Source: Nemopilema nomurai (Eukaryota > Cnidaria > Scyphozoa > Rhizostomeae > Rhizostomatidae). From it: DNA of 64,000 nucleotides. A program made the position numbers and the translations under genes. Where the stretch lies: NCBI GenBank assembly GCA_003864495.1, contig ML133383.1:3431560-3495559 (forward strand), written 5' to 3'. Numbering within the stretch: position 1 is the stretch's first letter; each line of letters begins with the position of its first letter. Shown here one piece after another: positions 1-53,000 of the stretch. The notes under the pieces were generated by a model. The model made no database searches. It was not told the DNA's origin and saw nothing but the letters and a program-made list of their open reading frames with translations.

Positions 1-140
1 ATTCGTACGCCGCATCCCCTTCCCCTAGGTGGAGTTTTACCCCTGGCGGGGCTTTACTGCTTCTTTGCTAATGACTGCTCACCCTTTGCCAAATGCTTAA
101 TCATCATCCGAGTAATTACACTAGTTGCCACAACTGACAG

Positions 141-1186
141 CAATGTATTCTGAATCGGCGCTAGGCTCATCCTCCCTGGGGATTGGCAATGGCGGCGTCG
201 CTCTGAATGCGGCTGCTGGCGCTGGCGGACTGTCCGGCGATCTGTTGGCCAGCATCCTGGGAACAAACAAAGCAGACGGCGGTGTCGGAGGTACATTAAA
301 ATTAATAAACATTTCATTGGCAAACAGCTGATACACCAAACTTGGTGTCTGAAACTATGTGTAGGTCTTTGATGCTGGCTATAGTCATCTGCAGACATTA
401 TGAGCTTGCCTCGTTGTGAATGTTGAGTCTTTTGCTTATAATGGACGAGGCGGACGTTCTTATTCAATTGTCTTCAGGGATATTTAGGAGTCCTTCTTGA
501 TATATCAATGTATTCGTAGGGTACGTACAGCCACTTTGGGTCCATAAAAAGGAGAGCTTGTTTATATGTTGTTCGTCATTAACTTTCACATCATTGAAAT
601 ATTATTTGATTGCTTTATTCTCACGATCACCATATAGCAGTGAATTGCTCAATTGTACTACTTCATATATGTTTGATATTGACTGAATTGGCGTGTATGT
701 AAACAAATGACTGGCATGTATTTACTGAACTATTTTTCAACCGCAAAGGTGTTGGAGGTGCTTTGGGTGGAGCACTAGGCGTCGGCGGCGGCGGAGCAGG
801 ACTCGGTGGCGGCATTGCTGGACCAGGCGGCGTCGGCGGAGGGCAGGGTATTGGTGCTGGCGGAGCCTTGGCTGAAGCCTTGGGAATCGGCACAGGAGGA
901 GCACTTGGTGGCAATGTTGGTGGAGGGGCTGGCTCTCTTGGAGGTGCAGGTACTGGTGGGGCTGCAGCGGCCCTAGCCGGCGGTGCCTCTGGCCTTCTCA
1001 CTGCGGGCGGCGGCACCACTGGTGCAGGTAATTCCACCAATTCCTTTCTAACTTCGCTAGATTTCCTGCTTTATTTTGAATGCTTATTCTGAAATATCTG
1101 TAAATTCCTTAACCCTCTATTGTCTTCTTGTTTGAAAGGTGGACTCATTGAAGGAGGAAAGGATGGCGAATTGTCTGCTCTTGGAG
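141..1186 (+). CDS. Gly-rich exons at the visible start of the giant gene
   Basis: Three exons (141-290, 749-1027, 1139-1186) encode glycine-dominated sequence with alanine and leucine, such as GGALGVGGGGAGLGGG. Every border is phase 1 and splits a codon beginning with G (usually Gly), so each exon can be duplicated or skipped without breaking frame, as in collagen and other repetitive matrix genes. The acceptor at 131-140 ends in gacag and the donors read GAG or CAG then GTA. Bases 1-140 read as intron. No catalytic motif is present. The role is probably as a flexible or beta-forming structural block. Confidence 0.7.
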
Positions 1187-4100
1187 GTACCATAGTTCCT
1201 ATTATTTTTCATATTTTATTGAGATCCAACATCTGTAAGTTTACCTTTAACCACTAACCATACTTACCTTGCCACTCAATGGTACTTACCTTTCGGCCAA
1301 ATTGTATCCATCTTACCACACAAACGTGCTTGCCTCACCACCTCTACCTCGCACCCAACCTTATTCACCTTACCACCCATTCGTATTCACCTTACCACGT
1401 GACAGTGCTATCCTCACCGCTACTCACACCTGGCCTCGTTTTGGCATGTTATCTGAACAATGAAGCGGGTCGCATGGCTCTTGTTAAAGTTCTTAAATCT
1501 CTGTTTGAGATACACTTTACAACGACTGACGGAGCCATTCTTTCTGGCTAGGAAAACTTCTTTCCAAACTGAAAACGGTGAAAATGAAGGACAAGAGCGT
1601 TGCTCTTCCTAAGACAAGACAAATCGACATCGCAGAAATACATCCTACCCATACCATTCCCTCTGTTGCCGCAATTGTTCCTGAAGAAGTACCAAGTTCC
1701 AAGAAAACGGTGCTTGAATCGGGAGAAGACTTGACTAATACAAGAACCTTCTACGACAGACCGACTAAAAGTACCATTGAAAAGCATAAGAAAACTGCAC
1801 TGCAGAAAAGACGAATTCACGGAAGGAAGTACATAACACATCCTACTGACCATGTGACGTCACGTGACACGACCATGACAGTTGGTGCTAACAAGAGATA
1901 CATTTTGAAAATTACCTCTGACAATGTTAGCATTGTACCAAAGAGTAAGCACGTTAAAAATCAAGTGACCGGGGAAGGCAGGCGTAAGATCTCACGGAAA
2001 AGATATAAGAGCCACAGGGAAACCAGCGGTGCATCGAAGTCACCCGGATTTGTGGGATCACTTGGTGGCCCGGTTTCGCTTCAGCAAGAGCAGGGTTATA
2101 TACAGGACCGGGGAACAAGTAGTGCGTTATTGCCTCTTGCTAATTTGCTAGGCAAACAGCAGTCGGATCTGAACGTCGTCCCAATGAATTTATTGCGGTT
2201 TCCATTGGGAGCGCAGAAATCTGTTGTGGACTTTGCAGCGCTCAGCAATGCAATGGCGTACAATTCAAGAATAGCCCCGCAGAGGTTTGTCTTACTAACG
2301 CCAAACGTACGACAGACGCTGGGTCCACAGATAAAGCGATGGGAGCGCAATAGGTATAACCACAAGGCACCGAAGCACGACCATAATGAAACGGAGGAAT
2401 ACCGTCATCATTTTGGTAAAGAAGCACCTTTATAGATCATGCCCAGCGACTAATTGACCTCTGACTGTTGACCTTTCACATTAACACAATTGACACGGTT
2501 AAAATTTAATGTCGTGATTGACCCCTTTTCAAACTAGGCTTTGTTGGATTCATCTTACAAATAGGTCAAATAAGCTATCAATCGTAGGCTAGATTAAAAT
2601 CAGTCATTTTCAGTTTTTAAAGTTGAGACGATCTTTGATGCTTTCTCGTTGGGTGTTTAGAATTGATTTGTTGGAAGGTAAAGGTTATTACAAAACGCCA
2701 TTTTTTCTCTCAGGAATATCAAAACTAAATACATTATTTTGCTGATTTCGCTTTGCACTGACTGGCTGCATTTCAACTTTTCAAAATTATTTGTTTGGCT
2801 TATGCACAATTGGCAATTATGGACCTTTACCCTCGGAATTGTAAAAGTCATGGCATAAGTTGCACTGCCCAGTGGCTAATTGACAGTATTTGGCCATCTT
2901 TTCTTAGACGAGGATGTCACTAACTCGCTGCAAAAGCTTGAAAATGCAGTTAACACAATCAACTCCCGGCTGGAGCAGGCATCGAGGCCCCAGGGACCAT
3001 CCGCAGCAGAACTGGCATTGGCGCAGCAGCTGGCTGCGCAGCAGCAGACTGCGCAGGCACAGCAGGTAATCTAATTAAAAGTTCTGGAATGTAAAATTTG
3101 AAAAATTGGAACACGATGCTTGAAGTAGCATTTTGATTCGAGATTGTAACAAGGTTATATGTGAAAGAAATACCTCATGCTCTTTTAAAGAACCATTGGT
3201 ATAATTTATGGTATATTGCTTTATTATTACAATGGAAGTTGCAATCTGAAATGACTTTAAAACATCCTTCAGATCAAGCAAGGAGCATTACTTGGCGCTA
3301 CCCTTGATCGCTTGAACTCAGCAATAAGCGACATGGCGAAAGAAAAGGCTGGAAAGGCTCTTGGAGGAGGTGGGGGAGGTACGACTCCCGAAGACGCCAT
3401 GTTAGAGGCAGCAAAGATGAAAGGTCAAAACCGACTAGAGGATGGGATCAAGAGCTTGCAGGAACAGCTGGCCAATGTTGCGGCGAAGGTTGAAAAGGGT
3501 GGTGCTGGGGGAGGAGCAGGTGCTGGGGGTGCTGGAGGGGGTGCTGGAGGAAGTGCTGGAGGAGGTGCTGGAGGAGGTGCTGGAGGAGGTGCCGGCGGTG
3601 GTGGTGCCGCCGGGGGTGGCGGTGCCATGGCCCCTGCAATGGCTGCAACTCAGCAAAAAGTGGCCGATCAACTTGGGAGTCTTGGTGAAACTGTCGGGAA
3701 GCTTGCTGGGGAAGTGCAAGCAATGAAGGACAATTCAAAGATGCTGGCTGCAGCTGGCATAAGTGGAGGAGGAGGTGGAGGCGGTGCCGCCGCAGGAGGG
3801 GGCGGAGGAGCCGGTGATGGTGGTGCATCCAACGCGCTTATCGGGCAAATGGCTGGAACTGCTCTAGGCAGCGCACTGAAAGCGGCTGAAGGTGTCTCTC
3901 AAGCAACTCAGATGCTGAACTCTGCAAACCTGGCAGCAAAAATGGCGGGCGGCGGAGGAGGTCTTGCTGGGGGAGGATTGGCTGGAGGCGGCATCGCAGG
4001 TATCCTTCCCGGAGGAGCGTTGGCTAATGCCGGTGCTGGATTGGCACTTGGCGGCTTAGGGTTAGGTGGCGGCGGCGGTGCTGGCGGTGCTGGATTGGCA

Positions 4101-7100
4101 CTTGGTGGCTTAGGGTTAGGTGGCGGCGGTGGTGCTGGCGGTGGTGCTGGTGGTGGCTTGAATGCATTGCTAGGACTGGGAGGGAGCAGTCTGACAGCTG
4201 ATAGTGGCAGCTCTGATGATTCAGAAGTGACGTCACAACAGAAGACTATGAATAACATTCTAGGAATTGCTTCAAAGCGTGAAGAGACTAAAGAGGCGCG
4301 TGATGATCATTTAAAGTCGGATAATGATGATTCGGAAAATAAGAAGCAGAGCTTGAAGAAAGAGAATGCAGTGCAAAGAGATGTGCTGTTCAGTCGACCT
4401 ACCGGAGGAGAAATTACTGGTTTGTTGATTCCGATTGTGAAAAGGCACAAAGTGTCAGTTCTGGTCCCAAGAGGGAGAAACCGGGCAACATTCAACTATA
4501 CCTCTGGGAATAAGTTCATGCCGAAGGAGGATGCCGGGAAGAAGAGACCGCTAACCGGCGAGAAGGCAATCAAGCAGGCGCAAGAAGGCACGGCAGCCGC
4601 ATCATTGCCCGCTGCAGGTCAGTAAAGTTGTATTACGGCGCCAGTCGTAGAACACGGCCATGTCTGTCTATTGTGTGTCGTGTGTTAAATAGAACGCGCT
4701 TTTCTGTGTTTGATTTTGACGCCAAGCAGAAGTAGCATAGAGGCAATGTTCTATGCTTCCAAAGTAAGATCACAGACGTAATAGGTTAAACAGAGTTGTT
4801 AATCGGCAAGCATTCTTACGCTTACGATCTGGTTTACAGGATATCGTCTATGCTTATCAATCAGAAGCGGAATATGGTAATCAATGCTTAAGCTGATTAA
4901 TGCAATCACATACACATACCAGAGACGCGAGTATTGGATTTTATGCAAGTTGCCGGGACTCTGCTTTTTTGTGCCTCTTTATTCTGCTGAAATAAGGCAA
5001 TATACGACATGCGAGAGTCAGCTTTTCTCCAATAGTATGGCCTTTCTAACTTCTAACTGGAAAATTCCAGTCAGCTGGATCTTGATGCGGCTAGATGCGG
5101 CGTCATTCAACATGTTGGGCCATATCAAGCCTTTCCAGTACATACATCATGCTTCTCCGTAATGACGTGTAAATAGCCTTGCACTGAAATGATTCAATAC
5201 CATGCAATCTCAGTTTATGCCACTGTAACATGAAGCCAAGCTTTTTTAACACAGGTGCTTCTACGTGGGACGTAAGCAAACTTCCCCACTGTCTCTGCAA
5301 AGTAATCATCAATTACACCTGCCTCTACACTTTCTTTCAGTTTTCCCATTCTGCATTCTTAATGCAGCAAATATTTTTTCCTTCGATCCTTCTCCCTACC
5401 TTAGACTAATGGCAGAACCTATCTACTTCATTCTAAAAGGAAATTTTGAAAATTAGGAGGCTTGCTGGTAGTCTTCCAATTTCTGCCGCCTGTTTCCTCT
5501 TTTTGCAATTGCATCATCAATAGTGTTCTGTGTATTGCAGCATCCCAATTGCATCGCCAGAATGTCCCCCCTCTGCTATTGTTTCGACTCACTAGGCAAT
5601 CTATTATTAGAGAATTCCTGCGAATCGTCATAAGAAATCGTATTGCAATCTGTAATTAGAGTCATATAGATTTATTGTAATGGAGATAGCGGTATTGTAA
5701 TGCAGCCAAGTGCTATGTATTTATTCCAAGTTGAAAACTAGTGATAGTTAGGAGTGGTTCTGGCTGTTTTGCACTAATTTACTAACATTATACTAACATT
5801 TTATTTGCAGCCGGTGGACTAGCTGTCCCTGGATATGGCGGCCTGGGCGGAGCTGGCGGCATTGGTGGTGCAGGTGGAGTTGGTGGTGCTGGCGGCCTGG
5901 GTGGTGCTAATGGCCTTGGTGGTGCTGGCGGCCTGGGTGGTGCTAATGGCCTTGGTGGTGCTGGCGGCCTGGGTGGTGCTGGCGGTCTTGGTGGCACTGC
6001 AGGGGACGCATTTGGTGGTGCCGGATTGACTGGCGGTGCTGCTGGATCGGCAGGTGGTGGTGCTGGCGGGGCGGCTGGTGCTGGCGGGGCGGCTGGTGCT
6101 GGCGGGGCGGCTGGTGCTGGCGGGTCGGCTGGTGCTGGCGGGTCGGCTGGTGCTGGTGGTGCTGGAGGAGGAGGTAAAGGGCCAGGCGCAAATGGTGCCA
6201 ATGTAGGAGGGGCTGGTGGCGGAGGAGGTGCTAACCAGCAAGTTAATGCGAATGACATGGCCTCCAGTCTGGCTGCTGGTATTGCAGCTGGGATTTTGTC
6301 AGGGGGTAAGGCTCTGGTGGGTCAGATGGAGTCGACAGGTGTTTTGGATGCTGTAGTAGCAGGGCTGCGAAGCTTAGGGGATACAGGCGCTGCTGCTAAT
6401 AATCCGAACGCCGGAAAGGGTGCAAGCGGAGGTGCAGGGGGTAATGACGGAAATGGAGCGGGCGCTAGTGGTGGGGGTAGTAATGGTGGTGGTAGTAGTG
6501 GCAACGCTGGCGTCAATGGTAATAATGATGCTAGTGGTGGGGCCCAAGGAGGGGCCGCAGGGGCTGGTGGTGCGGGTGGGGGCAGTGGTAAAAGTACAAA
6601 GGAAGAGCTTGGGGCGCTGATTGCCACGTCTGCATCGGAGGCCGCCGGAAACGCAGCTAAAGCCGGGCTATCACCTCAGGCAGCAGCGCGGCAAGCTGCG
6701 GAGGCGGCGTTTCACGCAGCGTCACTGTTTGCTACGAAGAATGGAATCCATGGAGGCCATCAGGAGCACGAAGGAACGATTCACGCCATCCCAACAGTGG
6801 CGATGCATCACCACGATGATCACCACGATTCACATCACATGTTTGATCATCACGATTCGCATCACCTGTTTGATGATGACTCTGATGATCACGACAGTCA
6901 CGATTCCGACGATTACCATGATCATGATTCAGATGATCACCATGAACATGCTGATGCAATGGAAGACCATATGCCGATTCATCACCATTCGCACCCACAT
7001 GCTGCCGAAGACATTCACGACACATTGTCACATGACCATGCGCGCCCGCCTGAAATTTTCGGGACTGACGCCATGGGCAACCCCGCTGTTTATAATCTTG

Positions 7101-10100
7101 GAGAAAATGGTCACATTAAAATGTCCACATACAATCCAGTGCAAGAAAATGTAGTGGCAATGGGGTTTGCAGGACACGGTGGGGGAGTGTATTCCCATGA
7201 TTTCTTGGATGCTCTACACACGGACCCAACTTTTAGAGAGACGGGCTCTTACGAAATGTCTGGCGTGCACAAAGGCATGTTCTTTGGGAACGGACATGGG
7301 GGTGGTGGTGGGGGTCATGGGGGAGATATGAACGACGAGAGAAGAGAGGGTCACGAGGAGGGTGGTGGTGGTCAGTTTGACCATGCAGATGAAGGGGAGC
7401 AACATTATGGGCCCCATGCGGCTCTCAGCCATCATGTCCAGCCGTGGTATTCGAAGACACATGGTGGAGGGATGGATCACGCGTCCTCACACGGAGACAA
7501 GCATTTCTTTGGTCACCAAGACTATGGAAATGTGTGGGGTAACCAGTACCACGATTTTGAGAACGGATTGCAAGATTCTGGTCACAATGAAGGAGGTCAC
7601 GGCGGAGGTGGCGGCCATGGAGGTGGTTTAAGTGGCGGTCATGGAGGTGGTTTTGGTGGCGGCCATGGAGGTGGTGGCGGCCATGGAGATGGTTTTGGTG
7701 GCGGCCATGGAGATGGTGGTGGTCATGGAGGTGGTTTTGGTGGCGGCCATGGAGATGGTGGTGGCCATGGAGGTGGTTTTGGTGGCGGCCATGGAGGTGG
7801 TTTTAGTGGCGGTCATGGTGGTGGTTTTAGTGGCGGCCATGGAGATGGCTTTGGTGGCGGTCATGGAGATGGTGGTGGCCATAGTGGATTTGACGGTCAT
7901 GGTGGATTTGGCGGCCATGGTGAATTTGGCGGCCATGGTGGATTTGGTGGCACTGGTGCATCTGGAGGGTATTCGGTCACGGTGGAGATGGAGGTGGCCA
8001 TGGCGGAACTGGTACTCATGCTTTTGGAAATATGTTTGGTCCATTTGGATTTGGGGCTCAAAATTTGCTTGGGCATGGCGAAGACAATAATGTTGGTCAT
8101 GGTGGAGAACATGGTGAAGGGTTTGGAGGTCACGGGCTGGGGCATGCCTTTGGGGGTCATGGTCTGCTTGATGGTGATGAAGGCAATGGCGGAGGGCATG
8201 GCGGAGGGCATGGCGGAGGGCATGGTGGAGGACATGGCGGAGGGCATGGCGGAGGGCATGGATTTGCCGGTGGGATGGGTTTTGCCGGCCATGGGGGCTT
8301 TGGAGAACACGGGGGTGAACATGCTGATGAAATTGAGGGACTGAATAGTGGTTTTGGTCATGGCTTTGGTGGTGGACACGAAGGTGGTCATGATGGAGGC
8401 TCTTTTGGCGGACTGCACGGAGGAGCAGACGGAGGGAGCCACGAAGGAGGTGGACACGGAATGGAAGGGCATGGTGTGGCCTCATTTGAACACGGGTTTG
8501 ATAGTGGAAAAGACGGCCATTACGGGAATGCATTTGGTCACATGTTTGAAGAAAATATAAACGACCTTGGAGATCACACGTGGAATCACGAGCAAGGGAA
8601 CGGACGGCATAACATTCAGAATGCGGGGCATTCCGCAGAGGAAGCACCTGGAGGTGCAGAGGAGCACCACGAAGGAGACATGGGAGGCGGCGATGATTAT
8701 CACGTGGGTGCCGATGCGCACGAGGGTGAGCACCAGGATGCGGAGACGCATCACCTGATTGACAGGCTAGCCAATCCCCAGGGCTTTAATCACGATGACA
8801 ACGGGTTCCACAATCACGACATTTCCGGTGGCAATGAAGGCCCTCACGGGGCACGCCACGAGGTCTTTCCCGACCCCCATGAGAAGGACAGCGAAGTAGA
8901 CGTCGTCTCTGATGACCATAGCAACCTCGATGACCATAGCAACCTCGATGACTCCGAGCGCAAGATGGTGGACGACTTTGTGCACAAGCAAGGTGTGACA
9001 GAAAATTTTATGGCCCCGCGTGTCGTCCAAGGACAACAGTTCGATCAGCCTGAAGATTTTCGCGCAAGGATTCTTATTGAACGGGATGTAATTGGCGCTC
9101 GGAATGCCAAGACTAGAGATAAAGGTCATGCCTTGAAATTTGCTGGTATTCCATTCAAGCGCAATGTTTACTTGAGAAAGCACCAGTATATAGACAACGG
9201 CTATGGGGACATAGATTACCAACACAACTGCAAGCCCTTCATTGTTTATGTCCCAGAGAGGTTTCGGGGGGCTGCTGATTCAGGGTACGAAAGAAGAAGG
9301 CCTGAGGGGGCCACGGAAAACCATTTTGTCAAGCAGGAAACTCCAGACTATGCGACAATTCAAGAGCTTTCTGATTCGCTGTTTCCCGCAAAGCTCCTGC
9401 AATTTTTACAGTCAAAGGTATCCACACCTTCAGGGCCAGAGGTTTCAGAGACGAAAGGCAGTGAAAAGGTTAATCCCCAAATGCTTGATATGTTGCAGAC
9501 AATGGCACAAATGATGAACACGGGGAAGACAACATTTAATAACAAGGTCTCGAGCAACTTGATTTCAAAGCCAGTCATGGAGGGGAGCCCGGGGAACAGG
9601 TCATCTGATGCTTCCCCTGCCATAGGGAACTTAGAGAAACAAGTGAAAAATACGACCGAGGGCGACTCAAGGGAAGGAGTCGTACCTGTGTGGAAAGAGA
9701 CGATGAATGTCCAAGATAAACCTGAGAGCGGAACCTTCCTTCAAGGAATGATCGACGCAGTAGCATCTGGAGAGAAGTCGGGGGCTGGTCTCTCCCCCGG
9801 AATGATCTCTGGACTGCTAGCTGAAGCCAAGGAAGGGCACGATCCACAATTAATGGCGAGGCTGAAAGCCGCCCTTCTCAATAATAAACCAGATGATGAG
9901 AAGAGTGGGTCCGCAGGCATATCTCTGACGCCAGCATCCATAGGGAGCCCTCCACCAACCAAACCCCCTCTTGGGGGCCCGGCAAAGCCACCTGTTCCTC
10001 CTCCGCAGACTGACAGCCAGCTGCATGCTGCGCAAGGCTCCCAGTATGTCACTCCGACGGGCGCATCTCCTGTTGGCTCCTCCACAAACGTTCTATCTTC

Positions 10101-13100
10101 AACGCTGTCAGATAAAGGCAAGTCATACAATCTTGTTGGTGATGGAGTGAAACCCCCTGACATAGTGAAGGCACCGTCCCCCGTCTCACAAGCAGGACCG
10201 GCGGCCTCAACCCCTGGCGGCAGTGGGCCTGCCGGGTCCGCCTCATCCTCCCCAACTATGCCGGCCAATAATGGCCAGCCTCCTGCGCAGCCTCCAGGCA
10301 AACCAGGCCAGTCCAGTAATACTGGATTCCCGCAGTACAATGTGCCGATTCCGGATGCTGCCGCACCTCTGCCACCAAGCTACTTCAAGCCCCCACCCCC
10401 GTCCAAAGGCCCTAATCCGTATGAAGTCCTTATATCTGATCAACTGTTTCCGGGGAACTACGCAGGCAAGAAAAAGTCGGCGAAAGGCAAGAGCAATGGG
10501 GATGAGATGGTATCCGAGCTTTTTGATGAGTTGAAAGCACATGAAGAGCCGAAGCCAATAACGTCAATGTATAAAGTGAAGAGAGTTGGGGCGAGCAAGA
10601 AACATGAAACCGTCAAGCCTGTCAAGAAGAAGGACGCGAAGGAGCAGGCAGCTCTGCGAACTATGATCATCAGCAAGAGCTCACCTGCAGACGAAAGGGA
10701 CTGGGTAGTGGACGAAGAAGGAGGCGATCAGAATATCATATCAGATCAGGGTAGGGCTCTGAAAAACCACGAGTCTCTCAGAAATAGTTCTAAGATAGCC
10801 GAGAAAGCAACTGATGCCTTGAACGCTACGGTAGAGAGCTACAACTTTCCAACAATCTCCACATTTCATGAGACTTCTTCAGTAGCAAAAGAAGCGTATT
10901 TGAATGAGCCTGGAGAGGTCCAGTCCAGACAAAGAATGACTTATCCAGTGAACTGGCTGAAATATGACTGGGGATTTTCACCAAAACAGCTATCGAAGTT
11001 CAAAGAAACCATGGAAATAAAGCGAAATGGGCCAGGAAAAGGAAAGAAAAGCAAAGAGAAGTCGGACAGCACGGGAAGAAGTCTTCTACGAAAGGCATTG
11101 AAAAGCCGGACATCAGAAGAGGGGAAGACATACGATTCTGGGCCCCAAAACAAGAGCATATCTAACTCAAAGAGCTTTGGAAGTGGCAAAAGAGGCCAAG
11201 CAGGTGAGGGAAAAGCTACGTCCAGGTTAGGCAAAGATAGGCTGGGCGAAAAATTGTTCATTGCTGCACAGAGAACAAATGAAAATGTGCGGCCATTGGC
11301 ATCGAGTCTTCTGTCCAGGAGACTGGAGCAAGGGTCAGAAAAGGGGGGCTTTGTCGTGGAAGATGACCCCCATTTAGTAGTGATCCCAGGAAGTTCAATC
11401 TTGAATTCGAAGAGCAAGATTCTTGAGCTGAGCAAGGTTAGCAACACTCGAGACAACTCAACTAAACGAAATATATTGGACAGCTTCAAAGAGGACGGCA
11501 ACCATCTTGTTATCGTACCTGCGGCAGATGAATTGGATGACTCCCCAGTTAAGAACATTGAGGCAAACGATTTAGCCGACTGGAATGTGGGAGCAAACAA
11601 GTTTGAAACGGAAGGAGAACGTAGATGGAGCATTCCAGATGTGACAAGCAATTACGAAAGAAGCAGTGTTAATAAGTCAAGGAATGGCAGTAGTCAAACC
11701 ACTGGGGCGATGGTTTGGAGCAAAATGAAGAGCAGAAAAACAGCCGAAGCCTTCAAAGTGGCAGGTAATCAGGGCCAGCTTGTTGCTGTTGTTGCAATCT
11801 GCTTTCACTAAGGCCACTTCTACAATATCCCGGAAATCATATGCTTCGTTGTCTAACCAAAAAATAGTCACAAATGCTTTAAGTTGTTTTGAATATCCTT
11901 CAAGGCTGAATCAATGAACCATTCATCTCTTCCCAACTTAGAATTCCCTTTTCATATTCTAGCTCATTTATATTCCTCATTTCTCTAACTCTTTTCCAAC
12001 ACTGCCAAACGATACAATCGACAATGCTCGTGTTATTTGAACCTGGTATTTAGAGCATGGACTTAGCCCCTTTTCAACTTTCGAAGCAGCCATCCTCTGC
12101 CATCTCCATTTGGCTTTTCAAATGAGTTTGTTCAGCATCTGAATGCTTCTTTGCTAGATCCAACCCTCCATCTTTTCGGCGCCACGACCACTTCTCTCCT
12201 CACGTCTGCTTCCATTTATCTTATGACACGTATCAAGATCTGTAGTCAAACTGAAAAAGACTTGAGTCATTGCTGGCTTTAACTTATTCTATGTTAAGCA
12301 CTTTCTTAGTTCCTCGCATGAAATTATGAACTTGTCATAATAATAACCATTGAAACATTTTTTGCAAGAGGCTTTTGGCTTTGAATATAAGAGTGGAAAT
12401 TTTTTGCACTTTAGAGGCATACCATCATCCTATGTTCTCTGTCAATGTCAATGTCATAATCATGTGTTTTCTGTCAATGTCAATGTCATAATCATATGCT
12501 CTCTGTCAATGTCAATGTCATAATCATATATTTGCCGTCAATGTCATAATCATATGCTCTCTGTCAATGCCAATGTCATAATCATATGCTCTCTGTCAAT
12601 GTCATAATCATATGCTCTCTGTCAATGTCAATGTCATAATCATGTGTTTTCTGTCAATGTCAATGTCATAATCATATGCTCTCTGTCAATGTCAATGTCA
12701 TAATCATGTGTTTTCTGTCAATGTCAATGTCATAATCATATGCTCTCTATCAATGTCAATGTCATAATCATATGCTCTCTGTCAATGTCATAATCATATG
12801 CTCTCTGTCAATGTCAATGTCATAATCATATGCTCTCTGTCAATGTCAATGTCATAATCATATGCTCTCTGTCAATGTCAATGTCATAATCATATATTTG
12901 CCGTCAATGTCATAATCATATGCTCTCTGTCAATGTCATAATCATATGCTCTCTATCAATGTCAATGTCATAATCATATGCTCTCTGTCAATGTCAATGT
13001 CATAATCATATGCTCTTTATCAATGTCAATGTCATAATCATATGCTCTCTATCAATGTCAATGTCATAATCATATGCTCTCTGTCAATGTCATAATCATA

Positions 13101-16100
13101 TGCTCTCTATCAATGTCAATGTCATAATCATATGCTCTCTGTCAATGTCAGTGTCATAATCATATGCTCTCTGTCAATGTTATGAACTTCTTACAACTGA
13201 TTATTGTCGCTTGCAATTATATCAAATATTTTACCATTTGAACTGCAAGTAAGTTGTCCGTAAGTGAGGTGTGACCAGCAAATGTTTTATTTTATTGTTC
13301 TTAATTATTTTTCTTTAAGCTCTTCATATGCGGGATTTTCAGGTGTCTTATATTTTTTCTTCAAACTTGCATCTGGTTAACAGCGCAAAAGCTACTTCTG
13401 TCCCCAAAGATAATCATGACTTGCCCTTGAATAAACTATTTAAATGGCTGAACAGAAGTTACTGATTTTTTTGGCGCAATGGATCAAATGTTATCAATTC
13501 TTTAGTCGCGTAAAGCATCACAGCTTGTAGTAACTCTCTCATGTGCCATCTAACATCGTAAACTTTTTTTCTAGATGAAAGAATTGCAATCGTCGTGGAT
13601 GCATCCTCCAACATAAAGAATTCTTCTGTTTTCGAGAAACTCAAAAATTCTCTTCTATTGTTTACTTCACTGCACACGTCGCCCAAGAAACACAAGCTTG
13701 GCCTTATCTCGTATGGAAAGGAACCAAGCCTCGATTTGAGTTTTCAAGACGAGCAAGATGAAGAAAGCATAAAAGAGGCTATAAGAGACATGACGTAATT
13801 GAAATTCCCCATTGCATCTTACTATAATCTCAAAACAAAGTCTGCTTATTGTAAAATTCTGCTTATTTTTATTTTATGTGTCAAAATTTTGTGGCCTGGA
13901 AGCGTAGAGCTGATGGCTCTGCAAAAATGTGATTTTCATTAACAATATTGTCTTTTCCATTCATCATGCCGAATTATATGTGGAGAATATTATTGATAGG
14001 TAAAAATACACGATTTTTCACGAACGCTGTCATGGTTTGCTGTTATTGTGAAGCTTGAACTGGAATATGTTTCTAATATACTTGATGGTTTATAATCATG
14101 CTAGAAGTCTTATGCAAATATTCGAAAAGGAGCATACGCGCCAACGCAGCGGTTACATCTGGGTTCGACCCCTCAAGCCTAACCTTTATAAATGCAAAAT
14201 GAAGTAAGATCTTTTGCCACCTTTTCAAACAGTTGCTTAAACTGTTTGTAGTTATTCAATGTCTTTATCTAGTTTATCATTCAAAGTACTTCAATTTTCA
14301 GATATACTGGTACAGAACCCAACTTAACAAAAGCTATTGAATTTGCTGGAGAAAAGCTATTTGATACTGGTTTGGGGAAGAGGCAGCATCTAAAAGAAGT
14401 GTTGGTACTTTTGATAGGAGGAGATCATGAAATAACGGAAAGAGTGCGTCTAATGATTGGGTATATGAAAATGAGAGGTTTGTTACTTTTTCAACGTAGC
14501 TTTTATAAAAGATAAACCTAGCCTACTATAATGCAAAATTCGACTTTTTTGATAATTCCAGAGCGACGAAACTCTATTAGCGAAGCTCCTAAAAGAAGGG
14601 GAGCTATAGGGAAGGAAAATCTTCAAATTTAATCTATAGGAGACAGCATCAATTCAAAGAGATTTAACCAACTTTTCTTGTGGCCGCTATGGTAATATTG
14701 TAATATACAGGCAGTAGAAATCCAGTTCCATGTAACTCGTCTATTTCCAAAAAAGCATCCTGTTGCATCATACCATGTCCACGTGTAGGGTTCTAATAAG
14801 ACTGGTTTTCGCTTAAGGGATCAAGGTGTACTGCGTTGGCATTTCGAAGAAGCCGATGTTCGATGCCACGCAACAGAAACTGCTAGCGTCCAGTCCCAGC
14901 GCGATTCACGTCCTGTCCCTGACCTACCCAAGCTTGAGTCAGATGCCAGCACTCCTGGAGCGCATGCTGCAAGGAGGTATGCTTTCTGCACTGTGTTGCC
15001 TGTAGAGAAATGCTCTTTCATGGCCATATACAAATTTTTATTCTAGTTGCTTGCTTGCAAAATTGCATTCATTATTCAAACTATAGGGACATTTGCTCCA
15101 AAGTAGTGAGTCGTTGATTGGCTCATCTTAAAAGTTTTCATCATGTACTGGCTTTGGAGTTTGTTCATCTGAATCCATAACTGGCGTTCTATTTGGCAAT
15201 TATTCTATTTCAATTGTTAATCTTGTGTTAGCACATTGAATAAGCTCTAGCATTTTCTTGTTACTAAGGAAGTATTCTGCCACTTTAGAAACGCCTTCAG
15301 ATCATACTTTATTTCCCTCATAGACCCACGTCAGTATTTATACCGCTCTCTTTCAATTGAATCATTTTTATTGTGATATGGATTGGGAACAATGTTCATT
15401 TGCACTTTATTTAATATCAACACAAGTAGTTTTGCACGTAGCCTTGCGTTTGTATTGAGTTTACTGCAGCTAATGGCCATGAAAAAAGATGAAATAATAT
15501 ATTATAAAGCTGTTCAAGTGCTCGATTGCTAAGGTTTAAAAATGACATATATTATTTCTTTACATCGTTGTGTTTTAGAAGTTGAAGTGGTTTCAAACTC
15601 ACGAAAGTTAGGAGCTGGTATTTTGACAAAAGAGGACAAGAGCAAAGCGGACAGAATTAAGGAAAATAAAGAGGAAGAAAAGGAAAAGAGAAAGAAAGAA
15701 AAGGAGAAGGAGAAAGAAAAGGAAAAAGAAGAAGAGAAAAAGGAAGAGCAAAGGAAAAAGAAGGAACGAGAAGAAAAGAAAGAAGAGCAAGAGAAGAAAA
15801 AAGAGGATCAAGAAAAGAAGAGAAAAGAGAAAGCAAAGATGCAACAAAAGGCAAAAGATAAGAAGAAAAGGAAGAAGGAAAGGAAGAAACCAACAAACAG
15901 TCTTACAACTGAGAGGTTTCGAACGCAGCCGCGGCAAAATCCGACTCAAATACCTCAACCCGGTTGGCCTTGGGGTATTTCAGTGAAGCATCAGCCGAGT
16001 CAGAGCAGCAGGGGTAGGTCAAATATTGTAGAGGAGGATGCGCAGTACATTAGTCCAGTTGAAGCAAGCTATGACAGAGACAGAGAGAAACGCGTTCGTA

Positions 16101-16636
16101 TAGCAGCTCCATATGAGGGTGGCTTAGAAAGGAGGCATGGCGAAAGAGAACTGTACACAGATCCTTTGTACGAAGAAGACTCACAAATTGTGGTACGTGG
16201 AGCTGAAGTTGCTTTGGCAAATGCCACCCGTCGATCCTTGCTGTTTCTATGATCTATGCGTTGCTATAATTTGCTTTTTGCATGAGTAACATAAGAGTTG
16301 TCTTATGAGCCGAATAATTCAACAATTGCCCTAATCAGGTGTCTTTTATTTCAATTCACCGACATTTTGAATGGTTGGTGCAGCAAAAGTTACCCTACTT
16401 GAAGTCTAAGTTCAGGAATATTCTAATAATGTATTTTCTTGTTTTTATTGTTGATCGTCACTGCCCGAGAGTGTCTGTGGGACTTTGAATACTAGTTTGT
16501 GATTATATGATGCATTGTTGATTGAAGCCAAGAATCACAGAGAAGCCCCATCGTGGCTAGATAACCTGCTTTGCTTGCTGATCCTTTACTCATCCAAAAT
16601 GATTTGCTTGTTTCTTTGCAGAATGACACAAGGTAA
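141..16636 (+). CDS. Giant Gly/His-rich silk-like protein with vWA domain and K/E tail (5' incomplete)
   Basis: Spliced gene of which twelve exons are visible: 141-290, 749-1027, 1139-1186, 1552-2415, 2908-3065, 3273-4617, 5811-11764, 13575-13794, 14302-14477, 14818-14976, 15579-16192, 16622-16636. All have AG/GT borders and their phases agree throughout if one base is missing near 7960-7975. Together they give about 3,330 codons; the start lies left of the window. Order of parts: Gly-rich, basic, helical, Gly-rich, charged, Gly/Ala repeats, Ala-rich helix, His/Asp-rich, GGH repeats, acidic/His-rich, Pro-rich, Lys-rich, vWA, Lys/Glu coiled coil, and a short last exon ending in NDTR. Composition suggests an extracellular, self-assembling, metal-binding structural protein (capsule, spine, thread or skeletal matrix); this is inference, since the signal peptide is not in the window. 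I do not recognise the family. Confidence 0.8.
1552..2415 (+). CDS. Basic, non-repetitive exon of the giant gene
   Basis: A single 864-base exon, phase 1 to phase 1, rich in Lys, Arg, Thr and Ser, with several dibasic runs such as SRKR and QKRR. It carries no glycine runs, unlike its neighbours. The donor is TTTG/GTAAAG at 2415. If the intron is retained, the frame continues only six codons to a stop at 2435, so an alternative C-terminus is possible. The acceptor at 1549-1551 reads ctag. The dibasic runs could be processing sites or polyanion-binding patches; that is speculation. Confidence 0.65.
2908..4617 (+). CDS. Helical segment followed by Gly-rich block and charged tail, giant gene exons 5-6
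   Basis: Exon 2908-3065 encodes a heptad-like helix (NSLQKLENAVNTINSRLEQ) running into a Gln/Ala-rich stretch. Exon 3273-4617 continues the helix (LDRLNSAISDMAKEKA, then IKSLQEQLANVAAKVEK), then gives Gly/Ala repeats including two near-identical copies of ALGGLGLGGGGGAGG, and ends in an Asp/Glu/Lys-rich segment and a basic segment. The paired helices could drive oligomerisation, with Gly-rich blocks as elastic or beta domains. The donor at 4617 is phase 1. Confidence 0.7.
5811..11764 (+). CDS. 5.95-kb exon: Gly/Ala repeats, His/Asp block, GGH repeats, Pro-rich and Lys-rich regions
   Basis: Very large internal exon, with acceptor ttatttgcag at 5801-5810 and donor GTGGCAG/GTAATC at 11764. In order it encodes GGLGGAN and GGAAGAG repeats (5811-6170), an Ala-rich helix (about 6600-6740), a His/Asp-rich block with clusters such as HHDDHHDSHH (about 6800-7000), GGHGGGFGGGHGG repeats (about 7590-7960) and GGHGGGH repeats (about 8190-8265). 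A mixed His/acidic region follows, then a Pro-rich stretch (about 9940-10400), then Lys/Arg/Ser-rich sequence. The reading frame changes by one base between 7921 and 7975. Histidine clusters of this density bind Zn, Cu or Ni in known proteins; here that is inferred from composition alone. Confidence 0.8.
5886..6170 (+). repeat. Coding tandem repeats (36-base GGLGGANGLGGA units and 18-base GGAAGA units)
   Basis: From about 5886 to 5995 the unit GGCGGCCTGGGTGGTGCTAA recurs with variation, encoding GGLGGAN/GLGGA. From about 6056 to 6160 the 18-base unit GGTGCTGGCGGGGCGGCT recurs, encoding GAGGAA and later GAGGSA. Period is a multiple of three, so length changes keep frame. Confidence 0.8.
7590..7965 (+). 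repeat. Coding GGH/GGF tandem repeat array
   Basis: About twenty imperfect 18-24-base units related to GGTGGCGGCCATGGAGGTGG, encoding GGGHGG with interspersed GGF, GGD and SGG. A second cluster with a 12-base unit GGCGGAGGGCAT lies at about 8188-8262. Such arrays are prone to assembly collapse, and the frame break lies at the end of this one. Confidence 0.85.
7921..7975 (+). other. Apparent one-base frame break inside the GGH repeat exon
   Basis: The repeat frame is open and glycine/histidine-rich up to GGTGASGG at about 7970. After that the sensible frame (FGHGGDGGGHGG and onward, more than 1,200 codons open) lies one base earlier. The downstream frame has a TGA at about 7919-7921, so the switch must occur after that point, most likely in the run GGAGGG at 7969-7974. 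Exon length also requires one extra base for the 11764 donor to fit the next exon's phase. A lost G in the assembly, or a real frameshift allele, explains it. Confidence 0.75.
12436..13190 (+). repeat. Intronic minisatellite, 24 copies of a 26/32-base unit
   Basis: In the intron between exons ending 11764 and starting 13575. Unit: CTCTCT, then GTCAAT once or twice, then GTCATAATCATATG. Copies with two GTCAAT are 32 bases and copies with one are 26. I count 24 copies of the CATAATCAT core between 12453 and 13164. Tail variants CATATGCTCTCT, CATGTGTTTT and CATATATTTGCC are interspersed, and a block with the TATTTGCC variant recurs at about 12530 and 12895, so whole blocks were duplicated. Confidence 0.92.
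13575..14976 (+). CDS. von Willebrand factor A domain of the giant gene (three exons)
   Basis: Exons 13575-13794, 14302-14477 and 14818-14976 together encode about 185 residues of vWA fold. Seen in order: first strand and metal motif (IAIVVDASSNIKN), a second strand HKLGLISYG, helix and loop TGTEPNLTKAIEFAG carrying the conserved Thr, strand VLVLLIGGDHE with the conserved Asp, and strand IKVYCVGISKK. vWA domains mediate protein-protein adhesion through a metal site. The first MIDAS motif is normally DxSxS but reads DASSN here, so coordination may be altered. Junction phases 2 and 1 match across the introns. Confidence 0.82.
15579..16636 (+). CDS. Lys/Glu-rich helical tail and last exon of the giant gene
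   Basis: Exon 15579-16192 starts EVEVVSNSRKLGAG, then has about 90 residues made almost only of Lys, Glu, Arg and Gln (predicted single alpha-helix or coiled coil), then a Pro/Gln-rich and an acidic/Tyr-containing end. Acceptor tgttttag at 15571-15578; donor ATTGTG/GTACGT at 16192. The last exon, 16622-16636, adds NDTR and a TAA stop. If the last intron is retained, the protein ends at a stop at about 16252. Charged single helices act as rigid spacers in other proteins; the role here is unknown. Confidence 0.65.
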
Positions 16637-17720
16637 CACTTCCAATCGTCCGGTGCTTAAACACGCGAGAACTCCTTCCCTGCGGCAGCAACGCGAGTCC
16701 TCCGCACACCAAACGTCCAATTACTAATTGGTCAGATGTAATGTGACTTGAATTGGCCACATCGACCAGCAGGGAAGATTCGTGGATAAAGACATTGACA
16801 GTAAAGAAACGGATGCATGCGCGAGCAAGCGTTATAGAGTTACGGCAATAACCCGTCCAGGTGCCTGCCAGAAAGACATAGAGTGGACTGGACACTAGGC
16901 AGATGCGCTCAACTTTGTAGTTCTCATGGTATGCTTAGGAATCTAATGCGCCTTCTTAGTTCTCCGCAATTCAATTGAACACCCATTAGGAGTCTTGAAT
17001 AGTCAAGAAAAAGTTTGTCTGATGGTACGATTCGCAGTGCTTACCATCAGTTCAAGCATTTAAGGGTTTCCGTTCCATTTTGTTATTGGATAATTATTGG
17101 AATGGGTTATTGGATAATTATTTCGCTCTGACTCCGACCTCCTATGTTCTCCGTAAATGAAGGCTAGGGGAAATTTCAGTTTTAGGTTGGAGCTTAAACT
17201 GTAAATTAATGAATTTTAGGGCTTTGAGTTATTTTAGTTATTTGAGTTATTTCTTAACTTAACTGACATAAAAGTCTAATTTCGTTTTAGAAAGTGTAAA
17301 TTTAATTTTCTTCTTCTTTTGTTTGTGCTCTGTCCTCAACCTGAACTCCTTATGAAAACTTTCAAGTTGTGTGCCTCTTGTGATTTTAAGTAAACTGGTT
17401 TTCTCAGAACTTTGAATGGGCTAGCTCAGCAATAGTCCTGACTCAAGACTACACTTCCTGCTACTCTACGTTCAGTGCTAGCGGTGTTATTAGCAAGATC
17501 AGTAAATATGTTTCAGAAAACCCATGTCATTCCACGTTGGGTGCAATGAAATTCCAAAATGAAATATGACGCTGCATAGAGCAGATTTCTAACAGGAAAC
17601 AACAACAACACGTTGACAACTGTGCCTCATTTTGACTCTCCTAATTACACTGCCGATCACCTCAAAATGAATTATTATCGCTAAATTAACAAATCCCTTG
17701 TAGTGCTTATTTGCAGATCT

Positions 17721-17763
17721 GTTGTTGTTGCGGTTGTCTTTGTTGTTGTTGTTGTTGTTGTTG
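17721..17763. repeat. (GTT)n microsatellite
   Basis: GTT units interrupted once by CGGTTGTCT, in intergenic DNA. Confidence 0.9.
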
Positions 17764-18355
17764 CTTTTGATGGTGAGATTAGCAGTTTCCTCGTATCATT
17801 GGACAGGGCACAAAAATGATCAATCTTTGTATTCCCTCGTGCATTCCATAAATCAAAAGTAGCATTGCTACAGCAAGTAAACATATTCACTGCAACAGCT
17901 AGGCAACAACGACATCAAGCAAATTGCGATTCGCGGAATAACTCCATTGAGCGCGGGTTTTCCCAACAGAAAGTAATCCGATACAAGATATGTAATCCGA
18001 TACCTGTGCTTGGGCTTAAACTAAGCTCAAAGTATTCGCTTCCGGCTCATATGCGGAATGGATAAAACTGTGGAGACTCCATGGTAAGGTATTGCTGTTT
18101 AGTTGTCACATTTGGAGTACGGCTGGCACTTACAACATTTGAACCATTTTGTACCGTATTTTGACTGGTTTAGAAGCGCGTTGTGTAGGTTTCATACACT
18201 TGCATTCAGACTGTTGGACTCTTGCAACAAGGAAGTGATGTGGCCTTATTACAACAAACCGACAGAAGAGCCAGCTATGCACATTTTGGGGTATACGAAA
18301 GGTCTAAATGGCCTTCAACGATCTCCACAAACCAGAGTAGGTTGATGATTGAATA

Positions 18356-18388
18356 TTCTAATGAATGTATGATACACATTCATTAGAA
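18356..18388. repeat. Perfect 13-base hairpin
   Basis: TTCTAATGAATGT at 18356-18368 is the exact reverse complement of 18376-18388, with a 7-base loop. It lies between genes and is followed by no T-run. Confidence 0.8.
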
Positions 18389-19375
18389 ACAACGAAACGC
18401 GTCCTTGATACTACCCAGAGAGGCACTCGGTGATTCTAGCGAGTTGTATTGCGGGGTTGGATGAGGGAGCTGGGGTGAGTAGTATTGGATGCTGTTTAAT
18501 GACATATTTTTGTTTCTTGTGTTACCATTTGGGGGTTATTGTAAATAAGGCTACCATTTTAAGTTGCAGGTTTTAGCATTTTAGCGTTGGCCTTCTTTGA
18601 CCGTGACTGAACCTCGTTAGGCCTTGATGGGAGTTCTCCGAGGTTGATCCCCGAGGGTGACAACCAAGTGTCCCACCCCCCTAACCTTGAATCTTTGAGC
18701 ATTGAAGCGAAAATTGAATTGACATTTCCTCTCAATGATGGTATACTGAAGCATCCCTGAATATGATTGCTTGATTTTGCTTCCCAATTGAAAGCACGTC
18801 AGCATTGGCGCGCCGAAGGTTGATTAAAGATAGTTAATCATAGCGTGCAAATTTTACACTCTAGTACCATAGTGGTTTCTTTGTAACTACTGACCGCTGT
18901 TATAGTTGTTTCAACTTTTACCGACAGGCACACCCCCTACTTCGGCATGCCTCTGGTCGTCATCATGCGGTTTCCCATGTCACAAGTACGGAGATTGCAT
19001 GTTTGGCCAACTGTTTAAAAGGAGGAATGAATAAATCAATACTAGAAGAATGGCACCGCAACGAATCTACTGTGAAAGCCAAGCAATTTGAAGCGGGTCG
19101 ATTTCACACTATTCTTGAACCGCAGCTGTGCTTGGAAACAACGATCGTCTCCAGAAAAGTTTCCAATTTCAATAAAAAAAGTTCCTGATACGAACTATAC
19201 TGAAGATTGCGGTAAGAAAGTGATGAATTTCAATTCTATGGGTAACTTTTTCAAAATATCTGGCTCTTTGGTTACATCGAGACTTTGTACCAGTGTGCCA
19301 GTAGAGTGGTTTAGTCACGCCCACGAATGGCCTAATAATGTTTCAAACGAGGCAATTTAAACATTGCCGAAAGCA

Positions 19376-20780
19376 ATGGAGGACAAAGGTCGTAATTCAA
19401 ACACTTGTGTCTTCGAGTTAGCGATAGAAAGGATGGAGAAAGACGAAGGGCAAGAGAACGAAGCATTTGTTCGCGACGACGAATTCACTTGTGAATCACA
19501 CGTAGTTGGAAAAGATTGCAATAATGCTGGAAGCTGCGAGGCAAAGGCAACTAAACCAAAGAAATATAATCTCGACCGCCTGTTCCTCAAAAGGTTTTTC
19601 CTTTGCAGCAAAATAATTTTCCCTAAGGTGATCTGCAAGCCTACGATTTTATTCATTCTCCTGCTTGTTGCATCGGTTTTCCAACAGTATATAATTTACA
19701 ATGTCGGGCTTATTCCAAGCAGATTCTTCAAAGTTCTTGGCGCTAAAGACAAGAAGGGCTTCAGGCCGCTGGTCTTTACAGCTGTTTACTTTATCGTCGC
19801 TATCGCCTTGGGCAACAGCACAGTAAAGTATATCTCAGGAGTGCTATACGTACAGTGGAGAGATGCTATTACAACCAGATTGCACAGGAAATACTTTTTT
19901 CTTGAAACTTTCTTCCACATCAACACGAAAGAGCAAAGGATCGACAATGCAGATCAGAGAATGACACAAGATGTCGACAAGTTTAGTCAACAGTTCAGCG
20001 AGATTAGCTCCAAGCTTATAATATCGCCGTTCACGATTGCATATTATTCATATCAATGTTTTTCGAGCACTGGTTACTTTGGACCAGTGAGCATTTATGT
20101 TTATTTTGTCCTTGGGTCTATCATTAATCGCGTCATCATGTCACCAATTGTGTCACTGGTTGTGCAGCAGGAGAAGAATGAGGGTGATTTCCGTTTCAAG
20201 CATGTCAATATAAGGACGAATTCCGAATCCATTGCTTTCTTGCAAGGGTCGAAAATTGAGGGGGAAAAAGTGAACACCAAACTACAGCAGCTTTTGAAGA
20301 TTCAGCAGACGATAGTTAATTTTGAGTTCTGGTTGAACCTCAGTGTTAATTTGTTTGATTACCTTGGCTCTGTTCTGAGCTATTTTGTGATTGCTATTCC
20401 GATTTTTGCTGGAAGCTACGATGACCTGAACTCTGTTCAGCTGAGTTCACTGATAAGTAAAAATGCATTTGTTTCCATGTATCTCATAAACTGTTTCAGC
20501 ACATTGATGGACCTAGCTAGTAAGATCACTGATATTGCTGGGTACACACATCGTATTGGAGAGTTTCATGAGCAGCTGGACAGTCAAAGCAAAGAATGCA
20601 AGAATAGTAATGATTGCTTTGAACGCAAATGTGAAGCCAATGCAGAATCTCATGGACAAAGTATTTTTTATGACTTGCGATCAGTAACATACTCACCAAC
20701 TGGCTCCTCCAAGAATTTAATGGAAAATATGAATATGACCATTATAAGCGGCAAGAGCATCCTCATAATGGGGGCAACTG
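19376..20780 (+). CDS. ABCD4: ABCD4 exon 1: transmembrane domain to start of Walker A
   Basis: One 1,405-base exon holds the whole membrane domain, beginning RLFLKRFFLCSKIIFPKV and running to MGATG at the donor GGGGCAACTG/GTAAGT. The intron cuts Walker A between its first and second glycines. The N-terminal 50 residues are charged and do not match the usual short ABCD4 leader. Confidence 0.88.
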
Positions 20781-21772
20781 GTAAGTCTGCTTTCTTCAAC
20801 AACTGCTGCCTGTTTTGTGGGACTGTGCAGGGTGGAATTGAAAAGGAGGGGGTGGGGTGTTGGATGCTGATCTGTCAAGTGCATTTCTCAAAATGATATT
20901 CTCCTGAATGAATTATTGGGGTGCAACTATCATCCTAGATTTTCTTGCATGCACTTATCATTCTTGTTCTAATCCCTTCATGGACTATTTTACATTTAAT
21001 ATTCTCAAATGGAGACATCCTTGCAATTACTTGCTCAATGAAATAGATCTAAATGAACATTGTTTTTTAGAAATGCATAAAAATTTTGTCCTTATTTTTG
21101 TGCTGACATGCTGCCATAATTAATTGCATTGAAGGCAAAGTTATTAGCGTTAGCTGCTGAAAATGTAATGTATTTTATTCACCAAGCCTAGTACATTGTA
21201 ATTTCTATCTTAGGAACAGGAAAGAGCTCTTTGCTACGACTTCTCAGGAATCTTTGGCAGCCAGAATCTGGAGAGGTGAACTTATTTTTGAGAATCGACC
21301 CAAGGAATATCTATTTCCTACCTCAGAGATGTTTCCTTACATCAGGCTCATTATTTGATCAGGTATGGACTCTAAATATGATCATTCAATATTTCAGACA
21401 CCATATCTAACTTATGGGGTATTACACTAATATGATTTCATGGACGGTGTTTCTGCTTTGTACAACATTTCTGTTATTAAAGTATTTTAGACAAATGAAC
21501 ATCAATTACTTTTGAGAAGGGGCATTATTTTTTTCATGTTAATAAAGACTTACCTTGAGCAGGTTAAATAGAAAATGGATCAGCCTAGAGATGCATTGTG
21601 GATAGTTTTTGCCATATTGTCTCATGTTTTGTTTCTTTATTTACTTTGGTTACATTTTCTTTTCTCTATAGATCATAAGATCTTAAGATTATTATCTGTG
21701 CTTATGTTTAGAATCCTATAATTTATTCCTTTGACTGATTGATTGGTTTGTTTGGTTGTTTTCTCTATTTTA

Positions 21773-52811: not shown

Positions 52812-53000
52812 CTGCAATTTGCTGAATGTCAATTCACTACGAGGCTATTGAATGGCGCGGCTGGTAGGGTCACGTTCGACTTTTGTTCTCTTGATGTGGC
52901 ATCATTAGATTAAAAGTTGGTAGCAAGTGTCTCATTGACCGAAGCCAAAAATACACGTGTCGCAGAGAAGGAATGCCATTCTAGCTGTTTCTTAAGTAAA

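What the first reader, a model, noticed from the sequence alone, without database searches (positions are those of the whole stretch)
141..16636. Undescribed giant modular protein: silk-like Gly blocks, His-rich metal block, vWA, charged helix
The sequence shows one splice-consistent gene joining Gly/Ala repeats, a basic exon, helices, a dense His/Asp block, GGH repeats, a Pro-rich stretch, a vWA domain and a Lys/Glu helix. Gly/His-rich proteins are known from nematocyst spines (spinalin) and mussel byssal collagens, and vWA from byssal thread matrix protein, but I know none that combines these parts. Inference: a secreted, metal-hardened fibre or capsule component with a vWA adhesion module.
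Basis: partly seen in the sequence, partly recalled or inferred. Interest (0 to 1): 0.85.

Follow-up and report, generated by a model that had tools for sequence, protein, structure and literature searches.

The report
Giant glycine/histidine-rich matrix protein
A gene in what is probably a cnidarian (the jellyfish, coral and anemone group) appears to encode a very large secreted structural protein that joins silk-like, metal-binding-like, sugar-binding-like and adhesion-type parts, and related giant genes lie on the same contig.

Summary
DNA to the left continues it, same strand and frame, to a signal-peptide-like exon at -30514: 31 exons in my model, about 5,750 aa, 22% Gly, 9 Cys; the 25 exons before 5811 join without a stop. 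Three PA14-type domains lie just left of the window; the database relatives that carry a name are bacterial. The vWA is solid (81 bits). The frame breaks once inside the GGH repeats near 7,960. A paralogue about 350 kb away repeats the order linker, PA14, Gly, coil on one strand. A neighbouring gene points to a cnidarian. Best explanation: a secreted cuticle or matrix protein with extensible Gly blocks, His/Asp and GGH segments for metal or cross-links, PA14 for glycans, vWA for docking. A nematocyst role has little support: minicollagen-type Cys motifs are absent. No transcript was available; gene unity and function are inferred. New variant of the silk-like structural protein kind.

The parts
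141..1186 (+). Three Gly/Ala-rich exons (141-290, 749-1027, 1139-1186). The gene model continues to the left of the window (19 exons, -30514 to about -319, on L011, L010, L009)
   Evidence: Splice sites and phases; Gly 27-49%
1552..2415 (+). Basic exon, 287 aa, no Pfam match
   Evidence: low-confidence fold, mean pLDDT 48
2908..4617 (+). Two exons (2908-3065, 3273-4617): helix-like Ala/Gln stretch and Gly/Ala blocks
   Evidence: matches paralogue C19:3799681-3799776, 56% over 32 aa
5811..6760 (+). Start of the long exon 5811-11764: Gly/Ala silk-like repeats
6800..7040 (+). His/Asp block, 27 His and 23 Asp in 80 aa (approximate ends)
7588..8470 (+). GGH repeats; the reading frame changes once inside, near 7,955-7,970
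8782..11764 (+). Rest of the long exon: charged, Ser- and Pro-rich; no Pfam match
10318..10479 (+). Family motif ..NTGFPQYNVP..KPPPPSKGPNPYEVLISDQ..
   Evidence: three places in the genome at E<=1, this one and two at C19:3780067 and 3787173
12423..13180 (+). 32-base minisatellite, 24.8 copies, inside the intron before the vWA
13575..14976 (+). vWA domain in three exons (13575-13794, 14302-14477, 14818-14976)
   Evidence: Pfam VWA 81.1 bits; collagen VI and integrin chains in the PDB
15579..16192 (+). Lys/Glu-rich exon (20% K, 19% E)
16622..16636 (+). Last coding exon, NDTR and TAA stop

Best explanation
Window 141-16636 is the 3' part of one gene of about 47 kb (-30514 to 16636) for a secreted structural protein of about 5,750 aa in an animal that is probably a cnidarian. 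How it most likely works: a signal peptide sends it out of the cell; Gly/Ala-rich and GGH segments form a disordered, extensible, silk-like mass; the His/Asp block and GGH arrays are sites for metal coordination or for tanning cross-links; three PA14-type domains hold the chain to polysaccharide (chitin or glycosaminoglycan) in a cuticle, cyst wall or surface coat; the vWA domain and the charged tail dock it to partner proteins. Shown here: the sequence parts, the open exon chain, the vWA match, the PA14 homology, the related genes on the same contig. Inferred: one transcript, secretion, metal binding, glycan binding, the cuticle setting.
For: 25 exons join into 10,114 nt without a stop, then a 5,954-nt exon and five more exons to a TAA; by my count, 23 of 30 introns are phase 1. 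Signal-peptide-like exon at -30514 ending in phase 1. Gly rule for silk-like proteins met in 2166 of 5669 windows of 80 aa. vWA 81.1 bits. PA14: 19 hits of 191 candidates, best 40% identity, intron and C-x3-C pair shared with related genes. Paralogue gene C: same order linker, PA14, Gly, coil, and further on Pro-rich, vWA, charged exon, on one strand.
Against: No transcript. One frame break. The stretch from -30436 to -24593 and the gap -18039 to -13243 are bridged without certain exons. Other signal-peptide-like starts exist to the left: -25392 and -26951, -18540 and -15202. The NPYE motif lies in paralogue gene B and the PA14/vWA parts in gene C, which look like two genes, so the window gene may itself be more than one. 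PA14 copies fall under Pfam's cut-off. The vWA metal site is incomplete. The cuticle setting has only weak support.
Confidence: 0.42

Rival explanations
1. Two or three adjacent matrix genes, not one: a Gly/His gene on the left, a PA14/Gly gene, and a gene ending in vWA.
For: Phase-compatible joining is built into my script. Other possible first exons at -18540 and -15202. In the paralogue cluster the NPYE motif and the PA14/vWA parts fall in two apparent genes, each with its own signal-peptide-like start. One AATAAA at 13430 in the intron before the vWA.
Against: No signal-peptide-like first exon between 1 and 16640 except one inside the coding frame at 6257. The vWA exon has no start codon before the domain in its frame. 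Gene C alone runs from linker and PA14 to vWA in the same order.
Confidence: 0.22
2. An internal (mesogleal) matrix protein, an elastic or linking fibre of the jelly, not an outer cuticle.
For: In Aurelia a vWFA transcript resembling hemicentin is among the most abundant at the medusa stage (PMC4334923, passage). Best vWA relatives in the PDB include collagen VI.
Against: The Gly/His-rich, Cys-poor composition differs from the collagen, fibrillin and laminin named there; no expression data.
Confidence: 0.2
3. A nematocyst capsule or spine component, as the reader suggests by spinalin.
For: Gly/His-rich parts (spinalin is recalled, not compared). vWFA proteins are among cnidocyte-specific genes in Nematostella (PMC12549020, passage). 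Cnidoin shows that silk-like proteins occur in nematocysts (PMC4321713, passages).
Against: No C-x3-C-x3-C motif, 9 Cys in all, no Lys-Arg pair in the first 60 aa of the model, whereas cnidoin has Cys-rich end domains and a Lys-Arg propeptide site.
Confidence: 0.13
4. A decayed gene: the frame break is real and the protein is not made whole.
For: Net 1-nt frame change inside exon 5811-11764, stop in frame 1 at 8342.
Against: After the break the frame stays open through the vWA to the stop. The GGH array of paralogue gene B also changes frame, between about 3775587 and 3775741, which suggests assembly errors in repeats.
Confidence: 0.03

Closest known systems
Silk-like structural proteins of metazoan materials (PMC4944945, passages)
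   Same: Signal-peptide-like start and Gly-rich stretches well over the published threshold; such proteins are said to evolve repeatedly and to be combined with other domains.
   Different: About 5,750 aa, with PA14, vWA and His/Asp parts; the passages seen name no such combination.
Mussel byssal preCols (PMC6477608, passages)
   Same: Gly-rich flanks and His-rich stretches in one chain; there the His-rich ends coordinate Zn.
   Different: No collagen domain here (longest strict G-x-y run 4 triplets).
Cnidoin and minicollagens (PMC4321713, passages)
   Same: Cnidarian and silk-like.
   Different: Those have Cys-rich end domains and a Lys-Arg propeptide site; neither is found here.
PA14 domain proteins of bacteria (P0001, Pontibacter)
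   Same: Three PA14 copies; 40% identity over 80% of the 170-aa query region; shared invariant columns.
   Different: The six animal copies aligned have a C-x3-C pair that the two database copies lack; the bacterial protein has a secretion-sorting tail.
Hydra PPOD cuticle lectins (PMC3531485, passages)
   Same: Cnidarian surface proteins that bind glycans and whose nearest relatives were reported as bacterial.
   Different: Beta-trefoil fold, small, no Gly/His repeats. An analogy.
vWA proteins: collagen VI, integrin alpha, mussel thread matrix protein (the last recalled)
   Same: vWA domain.
   Different: The rest of the chain; incomplete metal site here.

Membership tests
Silk-like structural protein (SilkSlider rule, PMC4944945) | 80-aa window with at least 25% Gly | tested here: met
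   2166 of 5669 windows, maximum 70% (rule)
Silk-like structural protein (SilkSlider rule, PMC4944945) | Signal peptide | tested here: inconclusive
   My own hydrophobicity scan finds MQLWYSLNLLLFFALQISTNHA at -30514; no trained predictor; link to the next exon inferred; rival starts exist
vWA domain (PF00092) | Pfam score over cut-off | tested here: met
   81.1 bits against 23.8
vWA domain with working metal site | DxSxS, Thr and a later Asp (rule recalled) | tested here: not met
   DASSN in place of DGSGS, and no Asp at the later place in the alignment to integrin alpha-E
PA14 domain (PF07691) | Pfam score over cut-off | tested here: not met
   22.5 and 18.7 bits, cut-off 24; third copy no PA14 hit, GLEYA 14.8 bits, cut-off 26.2. 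A related copy on C56 reaches 36 bits
PA14 domain (PF07691) | Homology to annotated members | tested here: met
   19 hits at E<=0.01 of 191 candidates, all 19 with PF07691 precomputed; alignment
Calcium-dependent PA14 lectin | Asp-Asp pair in the binding loop (rule recalled) | tested here: inconclusive
   DD in the third copy, DE in the second, SD in the first; DD in both database copies
Minicollagen/cnidoin type nematocyst protein | Cys-rich domain with C-x3-C repeats | tested here: not met
   0 matches of C-x3-C-x3-C in the model; 9 Cys
Byssal preCol | Collagen triple-helix repeat | tested here: not met
   Longest strict G-x-y run 4 triplets; 20 if Gly is allowed at x and y
Spinalin | Sequence homology | not tested
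   No spinalin sequence was fetched
Cuticle or cyst-wall protein | Presence in the structure, binding to chitin | not testable with these tools
   Only setting: two Chitin_synth_2 matches over cut-off in the genome, a family that also rang in 4 of 14 bacterial or archaeal controls

The most novel reading that the evidence does not exclude
A lineage-specific, clustered family of giant cuticle proteins, made by joining silk-like and His-rich repeats to a glycan-binding PA14 domain of the subtype known from bacteria, and encoded in duplicated divergent pairs of giant genes: the window gene with a leftward partner that starts near -34080, and a similar pair near 3765-3769 kb of the same contig. 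It would be an independent invention of a metal- or tanning-hardened protein-polysaccharide material.
Probability: 0.28. Interest if true: 0.72.

Novelty: new variant of a known kind. Interest (0 to 1): 0.55.

Why it matters
It would give a sequence to start from when asking how soft-bodied animals of this group build tough extracellular structures. The chitin paper seen here says it is open with what proteins chitin is complexed in cnidarian soft tissue (PMC10216261, passage). It would also be a natural design with silk-like, metal-binding-like and sugar-binding-like modules in one chain, and a case of a material evolving by duplication inside clusters of giant genes.

Tried and rejected
Silicatein-type motif (recalled): 0 matches in the genome. 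COX1 family: 0 matches, so no mitochondrial code test. Homologue search with the C-terminal 1388 aa, region 900-1260: 7982 candidates scored, none at E<=0.01; weak, since low-complexity words probably crowd the candidates and proteins outside 0.55-1.75 times the length are not seen. Own-genome search with the vWA: besides its own three exons, 16 matches at E 2.7e-6 to 7.9e-4; it missed the vWA of gene C that Pfam finds with 112 bits, so it does not prove the domain unique. PDB search with the second PA14 copy: one chance-level hit, E 0.94. Folds without alignment of 8995-9417 (mean pLDDT 31) and 1554-2413 (48): unusable. Literature search by assembly size: no match; the Nemopilema passage gives 213 Mb and 255 scaffolds against 212.9 Mb and 226 contigs here, so the species stays open. 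Transfer of PA14 from bacteria: considered, not claimed; no tree was built and saw only proteins of a limited length. Small exons that the script proposed (for example -17148 and -14527) were left out of the chain.
Full report
WHAT WAS CHECKED. The window is C19:3431560-3495559 of an unnamed assembly of 212.9 Mb in 226 contigs. I read 1-19000, listed open frames, fetched 60 kb to the left, built an exon chain with a small scoring script and checked boundaries and phases. Positions left of the window are negative window coordinates; L009:10000 is position 0.

THE GENE. In my model 19 more exons on the same strand precede 141: a signal-peptide-like exon at -30514..-30436; GGH and His/Gly exons at -24593..-21561; Gly-rich exons from -21021 to -18039 and, after a gap, Ala/Gln- and Gly-rich exons at -13243 and -12675; a basic exon at -12207; three PA14-type domains in two exons each (-10416/-9442, -4410/-3850, -2310/-1497), with a charged linker exon at -3371 before the third; and Gly exons at -1140 and -603. 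The 25 exons before 5811 give 10,114 nt without a stop. Of 30 introns 23 are phase 1, 4 phase 2 and 3 phase 0 (my count). The protein length, about 5,750 aa, is approximate. Composition: Gly 22.1%, Ala 9.2%, His 4.8%, 9 Cys, six of them in the three PA14 C-x3-C pairs. Caveats: the script joins only phase-compatible exons and no shuffled control was run; the start is uncertain, since other signal-peptide-like starts with phase-1 donors occur at -26951 and -25392 and -18540 and -15202.

THE FRAME BREAK. In exon 5811-11764 frame 1 is open to a stop at 8342 and frame 2 from 7924 on. Repeat composition places the change near 7,955-7,970. A 50-base intron at 7938-7987 would also restore the frame, but both its splice scores are below zero. 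The GGH array of paralogue gene B also changes frame, between about 3775587 and 3775741. Assembly errors in repeats are my reading, not shown.

DOMAINS. The vWA has 81.1 bits in Pfam; 25 PDB sequences match at E<=0.01, collagen VI alpha 3 first and integrin alpha chains next. Its metal site is incomplete (alignment; the motif rule is recalled). The PA14-type copies fall under Pfam's cut-off, but the second copy finds 19 proteins at E<=0.01 among 191 candidates, all with PF07691 precomputed. Three of the 19 carry an organism name and all three are bacterial (two Pontibacter, one Chitinispirillaceae); the other 16 are unnamed as to organism, so a wholly bacterial origin of the hits is not established. 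In an alignment of six copies from this genome and two database copies (one Pontibacter, one unnamed) 14 columns are invariant, and all six copies from this genome share a C-x3-C pair that the two lack. Exon 1552-2415 and the 994-aa piece from 8782 have no Pfam match up to E 1.

RELATIVES IN THE SAME GENOME. One PA14 copy as query gave 39 exon matches at E<=0.001 among 61 candidates, the gene's own included. Two sites lie at C19:3796470 and 3806204. The surrounding DNA shows two apparent genes on the same strand. Gene B has a helix/Gly exon (3770211), His/Asp and GGH arrays, and the NPYE motif at 3780067 and 3787173; a signal-peptide-like start stands at 3769034, but my rule found no donor after it. 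Gene C starts in the frame 3792372-3795854 with a signal-peptide-like stretch and the linker, then PA14, Gly, helix/Gly, basic, helix/Gly, PA14, Gly, Pro-rich, a vWA of 112 bits, a long charged exon, and a Laminin_G_3 match of 64.6 bits at 3830311 that may or may not belong. Window-gene exons match gene C in one order: linker 32% over 63 aa (E 1.2e-5), third PA14 55% over 89 and 58% over 57, helix/Gly 56% over 32 (E 1.5e-6) (several Gly-only exons could not be scored). The NPYE motif search found three places at E<=1; by eye it also occurs on the opposite strand at 3763570-3765105. Left of the window gene, a leftward frame with a signal-peptide-like start lies at -34051..-37743; further left on that strand are Gly/Ala repeats and vWA-like frames, two of which I tested and Pfam confirmed. 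That these belong to one gene is inferred. A similar divergent arrangement stands near 3765-3769 kb.

WHICH ANIMAL. The ABCD4-like neighbour (window 19541-20700) gave 901 proteins at E<=1e-20 among 3379 candidates; the best 120 were listed. The best nine have no name (58-84% identity); the best named are Actinia tenebrosa and Nematostella vectensis (both 56%), then a wide range of animals near 50%. So the database does hold animals, and a cnidarian is likely. Size fits the scyphozoan Nemopilema (PMC6441219, passages), but the scaffold number differs. Scyphozoan is a guess.

FUNCTION. The Gly rule for silk-like proteins is met (rule: PMC4944945, passages; test). His-rich ends of byssal preCols coordinate Zn (PMC6477608, passages); this is an analogy. 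Chitin encloses nutrient reserves in scyphozoan polyps or strobilae and occurs in medusa tissue (PMC10216261, passages). The genome has two Chitin_synth_2 matches over cut-off, but that family also rang in 4 of 14 control genomes, so this is weak. Against my choice: a vWFA transcript resembling hemicentin is abundant in Aurelia medusae (PMC4334923, passage), and vWFA proteins are among cnidocyte-specific genes in Nematostella (PMC12549020, passage). I still put cuticle or surface matrix first, mesoglea second, nematocyst third. No step of function is shown.

NOVELTY. Ten literature searches were answered; five were aimed at this combination, and their listings show no paper that describes it. 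I opened nine papers and saw passages only, never a whole text. The held main text of the sea anemone matrisome paper has no PA14, silk, histidine or glycine-rich term; one Hydra mega-thrombospondin with a PA14 domain is reported (PMC6526912, passage). The library is open-access only. I rate the gene a new variant of a known kind.

Noticed in passing
window 12423-13180: A 32-base minisatellite of 24.8 copies in the intron before the vWA exons.
   Followed up: no
L012-L014, about -34050 leftwards to about -56000, minus strand: A leftward set of frames: a 1231-aa Lys/Glu-rich frame with a signal-peptide-like start, Gly/Ala repeats and several vWA-like frames; two were tested and confirmed by Pfam. 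It stands head to head with the window gene.
   Followed up: partly
L060, C19:3763570-3765983, minus strand: Frames with a signal-peptide-like start, TPTGSGPVGS stretches and two NPYE(V/L)LT motifs like those of the window gene, head to head with gene B; a weak local match to the window gene, E 0.001.
   Followed up: partly
C73 and C60 (loci L031-L034 and listed places): Many near-identical PA14-type exon matches at E about 1e-6 to 1e-5, an array-like family.
   Followed up: no
L017 (C56:3249063-3252353): PA14 copies over Pfam's cut-off (36 bits), with a LamG-like frame nearby seen by eye.
   Followed up: partly
C142:214921-215107, C154:350371-354078 and other places: Other GH-repeat coding-like stretches: 12 matches of a GHGHGHG pattern in the genome, none of them in the window.
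   Followed up: no
window 19361-20893 (+), 24123-25019 (-), 44147-46180 (-), 52914-53979 (+): Neighbour genes: ABCD4-like transporter, a voltage-gated-type ion channel (Ion_trans 153.8 bits); by eye a multi-SH3 protein and an FKBP with EF-hands.
   Followed up: partly
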